64,000 nt of DNA, taken from contig BAFH01000003.1 of NCBI GenBank assembly GCA_000296795.1, positions 992,401-1,056,400 on the forward strand, in the 5' to 3' direction. Shown one piece after another: positions 33,677-41,702 of this stretch; position 1 is the first letter of the stretch, and every line of letters begins with the position of its first letter. The position numbers and the translations under genes were made by a program. The stretch is from Candidatus Jettenia caeni (GTDB taxonomy: Bacteria > Planctomycetota > Brocadiia > Brocadiales > Brocadiaceae). Under the pieces are notes generated by a model, which made no database searches, had not been told where the DNA came from, and saw only the letters and a program-made list of their open reading frames with translations.

Positions 33677-34045
33677 TTATTTGGAATTATCGAGCCTTTT
33701 TGTTATTTCACTCAAAAGTCTTTCTTTGTTAAAAGGTTTTTCTAAAAACGAAATATTTCCTAATGCCTGGAAACACCGGTAAGCCTTTTCCTCTAATACA
33801 GAAGCCATAATAACCGGTACATTTCTGTATCGGCTGTCCTTTCTGAGTAAAGCAAATAGTCTGTCTCCTGTAACACCTTCCATTAAAATATCGAGTATTA
33901 CCATATCATACGTATTTTCTTTTATTTTTTTGAGTCCATCATCTGCATTTGAGGCGAGGGTAACGGTAAACTGTTCCCCTTGGAGCATGTCTTTATAAAA
34001 TTCTTGCATTTCCGAGTCATCTTCTACAATGAGTAATTCCTTCAT
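33677..34045 (-). CDS. Single-domain response regulator (receiver only)
   Basis: 122 aa: acidic pair VEDD (8-10), phospho-acceptor Asp52 in VILDIL, and Lys in FLEKPF. No output domain. It probably works as a phospho-relay or protein-protein switch with one of the orphan kinases at 35072 or 38179. AAAGGAG before ATG. Confidence 0.92.
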   Translation of the reverse strand: MKELLIVEDDSEMQEFYKDMLQGEQFTVTLASNADDGLKKIKENTYDMVILDILMEGVTGDRLFALLRKDSRYRNVPVIMASVLEEKAYRCFQALGNISFLEKPFNKERLLSEITKRLDNSK

Positions 34046-35071: not shown

Positions 35072-36637
35072 TTATGCTTTGATTGGTAAGATAAATTTGA
35101 ACCGCGATCCTTTTCCCTTGCCTTCAGATTCTACCCAGATATTTCCTTTATGCATCTGCACAATGTTTTTACAAATGGCAAGACCTATTCCTGACCCATA
35201 GGCTGAGGGTATTTCTTTATAAAACTTTTCAAATACGCGTTTTTGTACCCCTTCATCCAAACCTCTGCCAGTATCTTCTACGGTTAGCTCCACGGTATCA
35301 GGGAGCTTTCGTGCCGATATGTTAATTTTTCCACGTTCCGTAAATTTTATAGCATTGTCCACCAGATGGGTTATCAAATGAAGTATCTTATCCCGGTCTG
35401 CTTTAATTATGGGAATGTCAGAAGGTATTTGATACAGAAGGATATTCTCTTTTTGATTGGCAGTATCTTTCAGTTCATTAACAGCTATTTTTACTAATTC
35501 AACCAGTGAGATATCAGATAATTTTAACGATTCCGTTCCCGATTCTAACTTAGATATATCAAGTATGTTTTTAATTATGTTCTTTAATCGCCTGATATTA
35601 TTTCGAAGAATTTCATTGATTTGATAGCCCCTTTCCGGCATACCTTTATTTCCGGCTAAAACAGAGCGTTGAAACATATCAAGAGCCATTTCTATCTTAG
35701 CGACAGGTGTCTTGAGTTCATGGGTAACATCCCGGATCAGAATATCTTTTAGCTCCTCTAACCGTTTTCTTTCGGTAATATTACGGCAAAAACCTTCAAT
35801 GCCAATGATCGTATTTTCCTGAATAATGGGAAGTATCTCAAGAGAGAGCCAGACAATCTGACCTTGTTTATGAATAATCCGAAACTCCAGATTCATTAAA
35901 TTTCTATTGACGCCCTGTAATACCCGGAGTATTTCATGGTATACTCTTTCCTGGTCTTCTGGATGGCAAAGGGTGAGCCCGTAACCCCGATTATCATAAA
36001 ATTCATGGAGCGGATAACCTGTTATTCCTTCCACGGAAGGGCTCATAAGAGAAAATTTCCCATCCTTCATACATTCAAAGATAATATCCGGCGAGTTTTC
36101 AATGACTGTCCTGTACTTCTTCTCCGCTTCTTTAATTTTGTTGAAAAGTCTTGTATTTTCGATTGCCATAGCTAACTGAGGCGCGATTTGCGAAAGAAAA
36201 TCGATATGCTTTCTTGTGTAATAATCTTTTCGCTTACTCCCAAAATTTACGCTGCCGATTATGCGCCCTTTATAATCAAGGGGAAATCCCAATCTTGAGC
36301 GAATGTTCTCTTTAAATAGTACAGCATCGGTAAGAAACCGGCCTTTTGATGTATCATCAACAAGTACCGGTTCACGAAATTGAACTACTCTTTTCATTAA
36401 ACTTCCTTCCATCGGATATAATACACCCTCTTTGAGGTCTGTATATTCGTAATCCTTTGAGAGCACAAAGGTTTCATATAAATTGTTATTTTCACTAATA
36501 AGAGTAACACTCATACGATCGAAATCAATTACCTTTAAAAGTTCCTTACTCATTGTTTGGTAAACTTCCCGTATATCAAGGCTGGAGAAGATGATTTTAT
36601 TAATGGTAAGGATGATCTCTCTTTTTTTAATAAACAT
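35072..36637 (-). CDS. GAF-PAS sensor histidine kinase (soluble)
   Basis: 521 aa, no membrane helices. GAF domain about 15-170, PAS about 175-300 (VIENSPDIIFECMKDGKFSL), HisKA with His306 in VTHELKTPVAK, and HATPase with DNAIKFTERG, DTGRGLDEG and GSGIGLAICK. A cytosolic signal is implied. Orphan; the receiver-only protein at 33677 is the nearest same-strand partner. Confidence 0.93.
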   Translation of the reverse strand: MFIKKREIILTINKIIFSSLDIREVYQTMSKELLKVIDFDRMSVTLISENNNLYETFVLSKDYEYTDLKEGVLYPMEGSLMKRVVQFREPVLVDDTSKGRFLTDAVLFKENIRSRLGFPLDYKGRIIGSVNFGSKRKDYYTRKHIDFLSQIAPQLAMAIENTRLFNKIKEAEKKYRTVIENSPDIIFECMKDGKFSLMSPSVEGITGYPLHEFYDNRGYGLTLCHPEDQERVYHEILRVLQGVNRNLMNLEFRIIHKQGQIVWLSLEILPIIQENTIIGIEGFCRNITERKRLEELKDILIRDVTHELKTPVAKIEMALDMFQRSVLAGNKGMPERGYQINEILRNNIRRLKNIIKNILDISKLESGTESLKLSDISLVELVKIAVNELKDTANQKENILLYQIPSDIPIIKADRDKILHLITHLVDNAIKFTERGKINISARKLPDTVELTVEDTGRGLDEGVQKRVFEKFYKEIPSAYGSGIGLAICKNIVQMHKGNIWVESEGKGKGSRFKFILPIKA

Positions 36638-37540: not shown

Positions 37541-38182
37541 ATGGATGTTAGAGAAGCAATTCATAAACGCCGCAGTATCAGAAAATTTAAACCAGACCCG
37601 GTACCCGATGAATACATAATGCAAATTTTAGAAAGTGCACGGCTTGCACCATCGGGTTCTAATACACAACCGTGGAGGTTTATCCTGGTAAAGGATACCG
37701 AAACAAGAAAAAAACTCCAGGCAGCTTCATATAATCAACGCCATGTTGGGCAGGCGCCCGTGATTATTGCTTGTTGTGCGGATATCAAGGCATTTGGTGA
37801 GTTTCCGGAGCGGATTGATGAACTGATTGCAGCCGGCGCCCTGCCGGCTAAGACTCGTGAGATTTTTGTTCCTTCCTTGAAACGGAGTGAAACGAGCGCC
37901 GATATTGCATGGCACTTATTGATTGCTGCTACAGGAAATACCGATATTGCTATCGAACACATGGTACTTCAGGCTGTCGAATTAGGGTTAGGAACCTGTT
38001 GGGTAAGATGGTTTAATGATAATAAAGTCAAAGAGATACTTGAAATCCCAAAGGGCATAGAAATCGTTGCGATACTTCCTGTAGGCTATCCTGATGAAGA
38101 GCCATCTCAAAGACCAAGATTTGATCTTGAAAAGATTGTTTCTTATGAAAAATATGGAAAAAAGAAAGATGATAAGTCCTAA
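37541..38182 (+). CDS. Nitroreductase-family FMN oxidoreductase
   Basis: 213 aa: RRSIRKFKPDPVP and LAPSGSNTQPWRF form the FMN-binding N-terminal blocks, and GLGTCWVRWF is the third. Likely NAD(P)H-dependent reductase of unknown substrate. Its stop overlaps the stop of the convergent Amt-kinase by four bases. Confidence 0.9.
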   Translation: MDVREAIHKRRSIRKFKPDPVPDEYIMQILESARLAPSGSNTQPWRFILVKDTETRKKLQAASYNQRHVGQAPVIIACCADIKAFGEFPERIDELIAAGALPAKTREIFVPSLKRSETSADIAWHLLIAATGNTDIAIEHMVLQAVELGLGTCWVRWFNDNKVKEILEIPKGIEIVAILPVGYPDEEPSQRPRFDLEKIVSYEKYGKKKDDKS

Positions 38183-40215
38183 TACGATGGATTTTGTGGT
38201 AACGTGAAGGTGAATGTGCTTCCCTTTCCATAGATACTCTTTACCCATATCTTACCGCCGTGTAATTCAACCAGACGTTTTGTGAGCGCCAGGCCAAGAC
38301 CTGCCCCCTCATAATGGCGCGCATATGAGGCATCTAATTGACGAAACGTCTGGAATATCTTATCCATATCTTCTGATTTGATTCCTATACCGGTATCACT
38401 TATGGCAAACTGGATATGTTGATCTAAAAGATCTGCAGAGATTGAAATCGCACCACTTTCCGGGGTAAATTTAATGGCATTGGATAATAGATTAAACATA
38501 ATTTGCTTGAATTTCAATCGGTCTGCTGTTAAAGAGGGAATATCTTTTTGAATAAAAGTCTTCAGGGATATGCCTTTCTTCAGAGAAAGTCCCATGATCA
38601 TATTCAGCACCTCAGTGATCGCCTCTTCTATAGAGAATACCTCATAGTGAAGTTCTAATTTGCCAGCTTCAATTTTTGAAAGGTCGAGGATGCTATTAAT
38701 CATATTGAGTAAGTGTTCCCCGCTACCGTGGATATCACTGATATATTCTTTTTGTTCTTCGTTAAGAGTTCCGGTAATTTCGTCCCTTAAAACCTCAGCG
38801 AAGCCAATGATAGCATTCAATGGGGTGCGAAGTTCATGCGACATGGTTGCTAAAAATTCTGATTTTAGTTTATTGGCCTTATCGAGCGCAATATTTGCCT
38901 TTTGAAGTTCCTCTGTTCTTTCTGCAACCTTCTTCTCAAGCAGAGTGTTTAAGTCTTGAAGTCTGGTAATACGTATGAAATCAAGCCATGAAGCCACATC
39001 TTCGTATTCGGCAACATTAAGCCCTCTTTTTTCTTCTTCAGGACTTACACGGATAGTTACGATTTTTTTTAGACACCAAAAAAAGAACGTTCCTAATCCG
39101 AGAGACCACACAAAGGCAACCGCAACGCCTGCAGCCTGTATACCAAGTTGGTGTAACCGGCTGCCACTTTCTACCGCTAGCATAGATTTTTCAGCAAAAG
39201 ATGCAACACAGAGGGTGCCTATAGCGCCCCCGACTCCGTGAACTGCAATGGCAGAGACGGGGTCGTCAACTTTTAATATCTTCTCAATAAAATCCTGAGC
39301 TAAGATCGCTCCTATACCAGCAATGAAACCGATACAAATGGCGCCATGAGGATTTACCCTGCTGGAGCCTGCTGTTATCGCTACCAGGCCAGCCAGTATA
39401 GCTGTAAAGAGTTTTCCGGCGTTCAGTCTCTTTTCTTTTGCATACGTAAAGAGGAGCGCAGAAATTCCCGCTGTGGCTGCTGCCAGGTTCGTGTTGGTAA
39501 TGACAAGACTAATCTCGGCGCTTGCCCGCAAAAGATTTCCTCCGTTAAAGCCAAACCAGCCAAACCAGAGGAAGAAGGTACCCAAAGTTACCAACGGAAT
39601 ATTATGTAGCCCCATGGAATTTGAAGACCCATCAGGATTATACTTGCCATTTCTTGGTCCTACGGCAACTGCCCCCGCAAGGGCGAACCAACCCCCAATC
39701 GAATGCACCAGTGTAGATCCTGCAAAATCAATAAACCCTAATTTTTCTAGCCAACCGTATTGTTCTGAATGGAAAAGGCTTCCCCATGCCCAATGGCCGA
39801 AAATCGGATAGATAATGGCTACCATGAATACCGTGCCTGCAACATTAGGAATAAAACAGGAGCGTTCTGCTATAGCTCCGGTCATTATGGTAGATGCTGT
39901 AGCGGAAAAGACCAGTTGAAAAAAGAAAAAGGTATAACCTAAATTACCGGGGTGTTCCTGAATACCGCTGGTAAAGAAATGGCTTACTCCAATCCAGCCC
40001 ATGCAACTTACCCCAAACATGAATCCAAACCCGACAGCGTAAAATACCAGTGAGGATATGAGAAATACTACGAGATTTCTAATAGAAGCGCTGATAGCAT
40101 TCTTGGATTGTGAAAAACCTGCTTCATAAGAGGTGAACCCTAGCTGCATGAAAAATACCATACATGCTGCTGTCATAATCCAGACATGATTAATATTTAT
40201 TTGTATGTTTTCCAT
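38179..40215 (-). CDS. Ammonium transporter fused to a histidine kinase (Amt-HK)
   Basis: 678 aa. Residues about 1-390 are a complete Amt/Mep/Rh domain with 11 helices: the twin His are His171 (TLVHSIGGW) and His326 (AIAVHGVGG), and the Phe-gate helix reads YTFFFFQLVFSATASTIMTG. A linker with coiled coil (about 418-450) leads to HisKA with His460 (SHELRTPLNAI) and HATPase (DTGIGI; GAGLGLALTK). This matches Amt5 of Kuenenia stuttgartiensis, shown to be an ammonium-sensing kinase. No receiver is fused, and no GlnK follows. The cognate regulator is not evident; the NtrC-like protein at 46856 is a candidate. Confidence 0.95.
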   Translation of the reverse strand: MENIQININHVWIMTAACMVFFMQLGFTSYEAGFSQSKNAISASIRNLVVFLISSLVFYAVGFGFMFGVSCMGWIGVSHFFTSGIQEHPGNLGYTFFFFQLVFSATASTIMTGAIAERSCFIPNVAGTVFMVAIIYPIFGHWAWGSLFHSEQYGWLEKLGFIDFAGSTLVHSIGGWFALAGAVAVGPRNGKYNPDGSSNSMGLHNIPLVTLGTFFLWFGWFGFNGGNLLRASAEISLVITNTNLAAATAGISALLFTYAKEKRLNAGKLFTAILAGLVAITAGSSRVNPHGAICIGFIAGIGAILAQDFIEKILKVDDPVSAIAVHGVGGAIGTLCVASFAEKSMLAVESGSRLHQLGIQAAGVAVAFVWSLGLGTFFFWCLKKIVTIRVSPEEEKRGLNVAEYEDVASWLDFIRITRLQDLNTLLEKKVAERTEELQKANIALDKANKLKSEFLATMSHELRTPLNAIIGFAEVLRDEITGTLNEEQKEYISDIHGSGEHLLNMINSILDLSKIEAGKLELHYEVFSIEEAITEVLNMIMGLSLKKGISLKTFIQKDIPSLTADRLKFKQIMFNLLSNAIKFTPESGAISISADLLDQHIQFAISDTGIGIKSEDMDKIFQTFRQLDASYARHYEGAGLGLALTKRLVELHGGKIWVKSIYGKGSTFTFTLPQNPSY

Positions 40216-40298: not shown

Positions 40299-41702
40299 CT
40301 AAGAATATGCGGTTAATCTACTATCAATTCCTGGTTTATTGTTCTCTTCCGCAGGAGCTGCCTCTAATCTGATTGTTGATGGTGATCCTTGTGATAATTG
40401 CCTGATAATAAACCTCTTTATTCTGAGGAAATGATTCATAACGAAATTGGCCTCCAACGGCTCTGTTGGAGGTTCGCCCTGCAGGAGAATGATTTGCCCT
40501 TCACATAACGCCAGGGCCGACTCTATTTCTAATGAAATCCCCTTGCAGGAATAATCACAGATAGCTGCGCGTGTCAAGGTTTTATTATCTTGCAAGGAGA
40601 TACTCAGTGATGGCTGATCCCATCTCCATAACTGACTTGGAACCTTGTATTGGTCAATTACGGAGGACGTACTATCTTTCGGTGTGTAAAGTACTTCATA
40701 TACCTGTTTCAACCATGATGAATGAGAATCAAATATATCTCTTACGATACGGTTCCGGTCTGCTATTTTAGCTTCTATATGAAACAGGTCTAAATTAGAT
40801 GTCAGCCATAACTTCAGGAAATGATCTTCGAGAATCTCGAAGGGTTTCCCTTTCGGCTGTATTTGAAATTTAAATACTGGCATGTTAGCCCCGATGCAGA
40901 GGTTTGCCGAATGCTGGCTGGCGCTTCTTCCGAATGTATACGGTTGAAAGTGTGCTACATTATCTACAATCATCATCCAGCAGGTTGGGCTATGCGTGTA
41001 AAACCTGACCGCAGGTTCAACGTTGGGATAACTTTTCAGTCTATCACAGGCATGCACAAAATCACTGTACAATCGTTGATGGAAATAAGGATCCGGTGAT
41101 TGTGTTTTTGTCCTGTCGGCATGGATAATCTTTGCAGCTTCAGATGCAGTGCTTTCAAGAAAAGTTCGGAAGATTGCCGGGCACTCAAGTGCATCAAGAA
41201 GGAGTATCTTTACATCGAGTCCATGCGATATTTTCTTCTGAAGCGTGGAAAGCAATTCATCGAGATGAAGATTTTCGGAGAATGTGATGCCAAGAAGCCA
41301 TACCCTTTTCTCAGCATTTTCTATTGCATCATAAATATCGCTCTTTACATCTTTGCGGGTGGAATAGATATTTGTGAGACCGCAAAGTGCTGCCGACCCA
41401 ATGAGCCGATTGGTTGTTTGTAAATATTTTTCTAAAGAAATTCTGTTATCATCGATAAGCCGGTTTGTAGTTTGAAGAGTTTCCTTTAATATATCCTTTA
41501 TATGCCCAAAAATTTCCCACCAAAGGTAGGTATATTCCATGATATGAACGCACATTATGGCGCTGAAGATAAGAAGCAGATGCTTAACTATTTCTGGTAC
41601 CGTATGCCAATAAAGTGGCAATAAAATATTAAGGAGAACTGCAATAAGAAAGAAAAGACATGCGATTAACAGCCGAACAATTGGTCTTGGTTTTTCACTC
41701 AT
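40299..41702 (-). CDS. Membrane PLD-like protein with PilZ-like C-terminus
   Basis: 467 aa. Two N-terminal helices (about 9-28 and 38-58), then a PLD-like fold around 115-330 (AENAEKRVWLLGITFSEN... pattern; GLDVKILLLDA) in which no intact HKD motif is found, so probably catalytically dead. The C-terminus (ICDYSCKGISLEIESAL, GQIILLQG) resembles a PilZ domain but lacks a clear RxxxR, so c-di-GMP binding is uncertain. It lies directly upstream of Amt-HK on the same strand (83 bp), so they may be co-transcribed. Confidence 0.6.
   Translation of the reverse strand: MSEKPRPIVRLLIACLFFLIAVLLNILLPLYWHTVPEIVKHLLLIFSAIMCVHIMEYTYLWWEIFGHIKDILKETLQTTNRLIDDNRISLEKYLQTTNRLIGSAALCGLTNIYSTRKDVKSDIYDAIENAEKRVWLLGITFSENLHLDELLSTLQKKISHGLDVKILLLDALECPAIFRTFLESTASEAAKIIHADRTKTQSPDPYFHQRLYSDFVHACDRLKSYPNVEPAVRFYTHSPTCWMMIVDNVAHFQPYTFGRSASQHSANLCIGANMPVFKFQIQPKGKPFEILEDHFLKLWLTSNLDLFHIEAKIADRNRIVRDIFDSHSSWLKQVYEVLYTPKDSTSSVIDQYKVPSQLWRWDQPSLSISLQDNKTLTRAAICDYSCKGISLEIESALALCEGQIILLQGEPPTEPLEANFVMNHFLRIKRFIIRQLSQGSPSTIRLEAAPAEENNKPGIDSRLTAYS

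What the first reader, a model, noticed from the sequence alone, without database searches (positions are those of the whole stretch)
38179..40215. Ammonium transporter welded to a histidine kinase, with twin His kept
A full Amt domain (His171, His326) is followed by a coiled-coil linker and HisKA/HATPase (His460). It is the ammonium-sensor architecture known from Kuenenia Amt5, so not new as such, but here it lacks a GlnK partner and a fused receiver, and lies next to a PLD/PilZ-like membrane gene instead.
Basis: partly seen in the sequence, partly recalled or inferred. Interest (0 to 1): 0.7.

Follow-up and report, generated by a model that had tools for sequence, protein, structure and literature searches.

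The report
Anammox ammonium-sensor kinase, Amt5 ortholog
This is the anammox ammonium-sensing protein already known from Kuenenia (Amt5), but part of the ammonium-binding site proposed for Kuenenia is changed here, and it sits beside a membrane gene that looks like an overlooked partner decayed in Kuenenia itself.

Summary
The gene is real: 678 aa on the minus strand (38179-40215), Amt + coiled-coil linker + HisKA/HATPase. It is an ortholog of Ks-Amt5: 73% identical over 403 gap-free residues, same length within one residue, and the same H171/H326/H460 numbering; the Amt5 clade has 100/100 support. Two facts are more interesting. (1) Of the seven residues of the proposed intramembrane ammonium site, D50 and T51 are V50 and F51 here. 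Residue 50 is acidic in only 13 of 29 orthologs, and it is Val in a Kuenenia relative whose Amt domain is 86% identical to Ks-Amt5. The pore serine S227 is Asn in this genome alone. (2) The gene just upstream encodes a two-TM protein with a divergent PilZ-like tail. It was found only in the window's order. It is co-oriented immediately upstream of amt5 in 16 genomes, and decayed remnants sit at the same spot in three more, Kuenenia included. In a second family it neighbours a different Amt-kinase fusion with receiver genes. New member of a known kind; the partner linkage is the new lead. No cognate response regulator was identified.

The parts
38179..40215 (-). amt5: Amt-histidine kinase fusion, 678 aa, ortholog of Ks-Amt5
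38992..40185 (-). Amt domain (residues 11-408); H171 at 39703-39705, H326 at 39238-39240; V50-F51 (D50-T51 in Ks-Amt5) at 40063-40068; N227 (S227 in every other ortholog) at 39535-39537
   Evidence: Pfam PF00909; gap-free alignment to 6EU6; residue tables
38866..38991 (-). linker, residues 409-450, coiled-coil-like helix between Amt and HisKA
   Evidence: between the Pfam domains; coiled coil read from the sequence, not computed
38662..38865 (-). HisKA (DHp) domain residues 451-518; phospho-acceptor H460 at 38836-38838
   Evidence: Pfam PF00512; H-box SHELRTP
38191..38523 (-). HATPase_c (CA) domain residues 565-675 with N, G1 and G2 boxes
   Evidence: Pfam PF02518; motif table
40299..41702 (-). 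467-aa membrane protein immediately upstream and co-oriented (83 bp gap): two predicted TM helices, helical region, conserved unnamed middle domain, PilZ-like C-terminus; candidate partner of amt5
40299..40667 (-). PilZ-like C-terminal region (residues 346-467); RxxxR box lost here (YKVPS), DYSCKG kept

Best explanation
The gene encodes the anammox Amt5-type ammonium sensor. An Amt trimer has been repurposed from transport to sensing: NH4+ is captured at the outer vestibule (W144, Phe gate F103/F223), onward passage is blocked by bulky F27/Y30/F34, ion binding moves the cytoplasmic loop 5 and C-terminal linker, and this changes autophosphorylation of H460 in the fused kinase, which passes the phosphate to a separate, unidentified response regulator. 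Shown here: orthology, architecture, conservation of plug, gate, twin-His and kinase motifs, purifying selection. Shown elsewhere for Ks-Amt5 only (PMC5764959): NH4+-dependent autophosphorylation and binding without efficient transport. Inferred: that this protein behaves the same. Because D50 and T51 are Val and Phe here, the two-cation site cannot be built as in Ks-Amt5; the likeliest form is a one-cation site around Q24, E31, N47, T109, T112, with altered affinity. The PilZ-like membrane protein encoded just upstream is probably co-transcribed and acts in the same pathway.
For: Best PDB hit is 6EU6 (Ks-Amt5), E 2e-194, residues 1-403 without a gap, 73% identical. Same numbering of H171, H326, W144, F103, F223, F27, Y30, F34 and the same long loop 5 (G186-N205). 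Full-length orthologs at 70-97% identity in most genera of the window's family, plus G045 of a second family (77%) and G001/G002 of a third (56-58%); G031 is identical to 6EU6 over its 403 residues. Amt5 clade 100/100 in a maximum-likelihood tree. Kinase boxes conserved in the orthologs. dN/dS about 0.11 overall, low in both halves of the protein. No GlnK beside it, as in Kuenenia.
Against: D50 and T51, two ligands of the Ks-Amt5 intramembrane ammonium site, are Val and Phe, and S227 of the selectivity filter is Asn, so ammonium responsiveness is not guaranteed. No response regulator lies directly beside the gene. No experiment on any ortholog other than Ks-Amt5 was found. KSMBR1_3866 (the Ks-Amt5 gene) is expressed at a low level in Kuenenia and did not differ between ammonium and nitrite limitation (PMC7438415), and its product was not detected in the CSTR1 proteome (PMC7709395).
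Confidence: 0.85

Rival explanations
1. Retuned or blunted sensor: the protein is still a kinase, but in this lineage loss of D50/T51 (and S227 in this genome) has shifted it to much lower ammonium affinity, a one-ion response, or near-constitutive activity.
For: D50V/T51F in the whole genus (G000, G027, G028) and S227N in this genome only. Residue 50 is acidic in only 13 of 29 orthologs (4 Asp, 9 Glu; 14 Val, 1 Leu, 1 Ile), and the acidic state changes at least 7 times on the whole Amt tree.
Against: Q24, E31, N47 and T109 are invariant and position 112 is always Thr or Ser in the 29 orthologs that cover them. Purifying selection is intact. Loss of the acidic residue recurs in several lineages that keep the gene, so D50 may simply not be essential.
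Confidence: 0.35
2. Transceptor: it both transports ammonium and signals.
For: Twin His, Phe gate and W144 are all kept; the other Amts of the genome share the twin His.
Against: Plug residues F27, Y30, F34 are conserved; Y30 occurs in only 4 of 93 other Amt domains, all 4 in long, fused ORFs. Ks-Amt5 with the same plug did not translocate NH4+ efficiently (PMC5764959).
Confidence: 0.08
3. The upstream PilZ-like gene is only a syntenic bystander and has nothing to do with ammonium sensing.
For: Other neighbours (PDZ-TPR gene, 218-aa gene, nitroreductase) are about equally conserved in the family. The partner is missing or decayed in several genomes that keep amt5 (Kuenenia G031, G030, G032, G033, G026). 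In G044 and G045 it is not beside an Amt-kinase gene.
Against: In three genomes of a second family (one genus) it sits 1.6 kb from a non-orthologous Amt-kinase fusion in an otherwise different gene context.
Confidence: 0.4

Closest known systems
Ks-Amt5 (kuste3690 / KSMBR1_3866, PDB 6EU6), Candidatus Kuenenia stuttgartiensis
   Same: Whole architecture, length (679 vs 678 aa), H171/H326/H460 numbering, plug residues, long loop 5, no GlnK nearby, no receiver; 73% identity over the Amt domain
   Different: D50V, T51F, S227N; intact PilZ-like membrane gene upstream, of which Kuenenia keeps only a remnant
PDB 8QJ3/8QJ4/8QPF, 644-661-residue 'Ammonium transporter' chains
   Same: Second-best solved relatives over the Amt domain (E about 1e-83) with long C-terminal extensions; carry the Q/E/N/D residues of the ammonium site
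   Different: The match ends after the Amt domain (query residues 10-418); the C-terminal part is not related by this search
Amt-HisKA_2 kinases of the order's second family f4 (e.g. L184:10076-12094)
   Same: Amt fused to a histidine kinase in the same order; in three genomes near a homolog of the same PilZ-like gene
   Different: Different kinase class (HisKA_2/HWE), separate branch of the Amt tree, lone receiver genes adjacent
AfAmt1 / AmtB assimilatory transporters (PDB 2B2F, 1XQE)
   Same: Amt fold, twin His, Phe gate
   Different: No kinase; AfAmt1 lacks the Q/E/N/D site residues in the alignment

Membership tests
Amt5-type ammonium sensor histidine kinase | Complete Amt domain with twin His, Phe gate and W144 | tested here: met
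Amt5-type ammonium sensor histidine kinase | Selectivity-filter serine S227 | tested here: not met
   Asn227 (AAT) in the window genome; Ser in the 29 other orthologs, AGT in the three checked. A point difference from congeners 97% identical, so it does not bear on orthology
Amt5-type ammonium sensor histidine kinase | C-terminal HisKA/HATPase_c kinase with intact H, N and G boxes, directly fused, no HAMP/PAS | tested here: met
Amt5-type ammonium sensor histidine kinase | Pore plug F27/Y30/F34 | tested here: met
Amt5-type ammonium sensor histidine kinase | Intramembrane NH4+ site Q24, E31, N47, D50, T51, T109, T112 as in Ks-Amt5 | tested here: not met
   5 of 7 kept; D50 is Val and T51 is Phe. 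D50 varies among clear orthologs, so this full set describes Ks-Amt5 rather than defining the family
Amt5-type ammonium sensor histidine kinase | Phylogenetic placement with Ks-Amt5 | tested here: met
   Clade support 100/100
Amt5-type ammonium sensor histidine kinase | NH4+-modulated autophosphorylation; no net transport | not testable with these tools
   Shown for Ks-Amt5 only (PMC5764959)
GlnK-regulated assimilatory Amt | glnK gene adjacent | tested here: not met
   P-II genes lie at other Amt loci; nearest to amt5 is SbtB-like, about 8 kb away
PilZ (upstream gene) | Above-cut-off PF07238 match | tested here: not met
   Best 13.3 bits in ortholog L130, cut-off 22.5; none for the window protein
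PilZ (upstream gene) | RxxxR and DxSxxG c-di-GMP motifs | tested here: inconclusive
   RKxPR box in most of the 22 orthologs printed, with DYSxxG in many of them; in the window's genus RxxxR is lost. Profile-profile match to PilZ domains 75%, E 2.6e-5
Phospholipase D-like (upstream gene) | Profile similarity to PLDc_2 | tested here: not met
   hhalign probability 1.7%; no Pfam or PDB match

The most novel reading that the evidence does not exclude
Anammox ammonium sensing is a two-protein membrane module, not one protein: an Amt-kinase plus an anammox-specific two-TM protein with a PilZ-like tail that may tie ammonium sensing to c-di-GMP. The module was assembled with two separate Amt-kinase fusions, and its PilZ limb is decaying in several lineages, including Kuenenia, where the sensor was characterised. 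In parallel, the acidic residue 50 of the proposed ammonium site is dispensable.
Probability: 0.35. Interest if true: 0.6.

Novelty: new member of a known kind. Interest (0 to 1): 0.4.

Why it matters
Ks-Amt5 is the prototype of a transporter turned receptor, yet its ligand site rests on one crystal structure and its downstream partner is unknown. The orthologs give a ready natural mutant series at residues 50 and 51. They show that an acid at position 50 is not needed for the gene to persist, and that the same residue set occurs in many unfused Amts, so the set is not sensor-specific. The upstream gene is a concrete partner candidate that could hardly be seen from the Kuenenia genome, where only a fragment survives.

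Tried and rejected
Structure prediction of the 467-aa neighbour from two sequences: pLDDT 38, pTM 0.25, unusable, so no fold search was run. PLD-like reading of the neighbour: not supported by profile comparison, no PDB match. Own paralog G000:C3:1530948-1532366, which aligned into the kinase region, first looked like an Amt with a kinase stub; it is an Amt with a C-terminal coiled coil and no kinase domain visible in its sequence. Response-regulator search: the lone receiver gene at 33677-34045 goes with the GAF-PAS kinase 35072-36637 (adjacent within tens of bases in relatives), and that kinase's sequence next to its His differs from that of Amt5, so I do not assign it; the Amt5 kinase domain's near relatives that I looked at are hybrid kinases, some next to further receiver proteins without a DNA-binding output, which does not single out a regulator. 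Decay of the window gene: rejected by dN/dS. Literature: no relevant paper held links an Amt with PilZ; Amt fused to a diguanylate cyclase gave no paper.

Full report
Observation. The minus-strand ORF 38179-40215 encodes 678 aa: Amt (11-408), HisKA (451-518) and HATPase_c (565-675), with no receiver.

Identity. The best solved relative is 6EU6, the Amt domain of Ks-Amt5, aligned over residues 1-403 without a gap at 73% identity. Pfluger et al. (PMC5764959) number the key residues of Ks-Amt5 exactly as found here. In the window's order (62 genomes) full-length orthologs occur at 56-97% identity: in most genera of the window's family, in G045 of family f4 (77%), and in G001/G002 of family f2. 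Genome G031 is identical to 6EU6 over its 403 residues and therefore stands for Kuenenia. A maximum-likelihood tree puts the window protein in one clade with Ks-Amt5 at 100/100 support, apart from the other Amts of its own genome. dN/dS against two congeneric genomes is about 0.11 overall and low in both the Amt and kinase halves. This is the Amt5 ortholog of another anammox genus. The genus was not named by the tools; four contigs and 4.09 Mb recall Jettenia, which is memory and not a test.

Lack of GlnK and lack of a receiver are properties of Ks-Amt5 itself. In this genome eight P-II-type genes exist; several sit at other Amt loci, and the nearest to amt5 is an SbtB-like gene about 8 kb away.

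What differs in the receptor. Ks-Amt5 was proposed to hold two NH4+ ions between Q24, E31, N47, D50, T51, T109 and T112, with E31 and D50 as the only acids. Here D50 is Val and T51 is Phe; the other five are kept. Among 29 orthologs covering the site, residue 50 is Asp in 4, Glu in 9, Val in 14, Leu in 1 and Ile in 1; even G030, the same genus as Kuenenia with an Amt domain 86% identical, has Val. Q24, E31, N47 and T109 never change, and residue 112 is Thr or Ser. Conversely, 39 of 70 apparently unfused Amt ORFs from many phyla carry the full Q/E/N/acid/T/S-or-T set. That sample was drawn by similarity to Amt5 and is biased towards this Amt subfamily, and 'unfused' means only a short ORF. AfAmt1, the comparator of the paper, belongs to a subfamily without these residues. 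So the residue set is not a sensor signature, and an acid at residue 50 is not required for the gene to persist. Y30 of the plug is the better mark: 4 of 93 other Amts have it, all in long ORFs. The window genome alone has S227N (AAT; AGT in the relatives checked); a single-base assembly error cannot be excluded. The kinase G2 box is GAGLGL here against GTGLGL in most orthologs.

The neighbour. The 467-aa gene 40299-41702(-) lies 83 bp upstream on the same strand. Of 392 planctomycete genomes searched, 17 have it, all in the window's order; the order-wide search of 62 genomes finds it in 25, counting fragments. In the window's family it is immediately upstream of amt5, same strand, in 16 genomes (15 with a gap of 45-101 bases between match ends, plus G038, where the matches overlap by 6 bases and an in-frame stop is present). 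Three further genomes (G026, G033, G031 = Kuenenia) carry only broken fragments at the same spot. In two others of the family (G023, G039) the two genes lie on separate contigs and could not be judged. Some orthologs (genus g11) have lost the C-terminal part. Synteny in this family is generally high: a PDZ-TPR gene, a 218-aa gene and a nitroreductase are conserved nearby too, so adjacency there is weak evidence alone. The stronger point is in family f4, where three genomes of one genus carry the same gene 1.6 kb upstream of a different Amt-kinase fusion (HisKA_2 type) in a different context. G044 and G045 are exceptions. Counted as independent pairings this is two.

Nature of the neighbour. 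Two TM helices and a long helical stretch read from the sequence, a conserved middle domain without a Pfam or PDB match, and a C-terminal region that aligns to PilZ domains of the same genomes (hhalign 75%, pairwise E 2.6e-5) with RxxxR and DxSxxG boxes in most orthologs. A 601-aa protein of G035 matches both this region and the PilZ family, the latter only at the cut-off. In the window's genus the RxxxR box is gone, and this region evolves faster (dN/dS about 0.15-0.2) than the rest (0.04-0.06). The PLD reading found no support. The AlphaFold2 model was unusable.

Mechanism. Best-supported: an ammonium-gated histidine kinase working like Ks-Amt5. Steps shown here are sequence-level only; ammonium control, lack of transport and signal direction are transferred from Ks-Amt5. 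A one-cation form of the site is inference. The regulator is unknown: the lone receiver at 33677 belongs with the GAF-PAS kinase beside it. In f4 lone receiver genes flank the Amt-HisKA_2 kinase in most of the ten loci examined, a lead for that kinase only.

Verdict. The natural variation at residues 50/51/227 and the candidate partner are the points worth following.

Noticed in passing
window:30152-31457 (-): Sbt_1 bicarbonate transporter gene followed by a P-II-like (SbtB-like) gene in an anammox genome; within the relatives' regions compared, seen only in the window's genus.
   Followed up: partly
G000:C3:1530948-1532366 (L145): Paralog of Amt5 (52% identical) with Ala at position 227 and a long C-terminal coiled coil but no kinase domain seen, with counterparts in several related genomes; the Kuenenia literature speaks of a second Amt with a histidine kinase domain, which may be its counterpart.
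   Followed up: partly
L184:10076-12750, L185, L186, L189-L195: Amt-HisKA_2 kinase fusions in family f4 with lone receiver-domain genes adjacent in most genomes.
   Followed up: partly
L150, L151: Amt domain about 57-59% identical to Amt5 fused to several PAS/GAF-like domains and a histidine kinase (about 1250-1264 aa) in family f3; these also have Val at residue 50.
   Followed up: partly
G045:C4:19007-21040 (L106): A genome of family f4 carries a 77%-identical Amt5 grouping with genus g3 of the window's family: horizontal transfer or assembly contamination.
   Followed up: no
G014:C20:25091-27113: amt5 broken into two frames with an in-frame TAG: pseudogene or assembly error.
   Followed up: no
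window:42400-48559 (+): Divergent 1402-aa multi-PAS histidine kinase followed by an NtrC-type sigma-54 activator; in the regions compared, beside amt5 only in the window's genus and in G032.
   Followed up: no
window:49277-50431 (+): PAS plus HD_5-domain protein with no counterpart in the relatives' regions compared (some regions end before this point).
   Followed up: no
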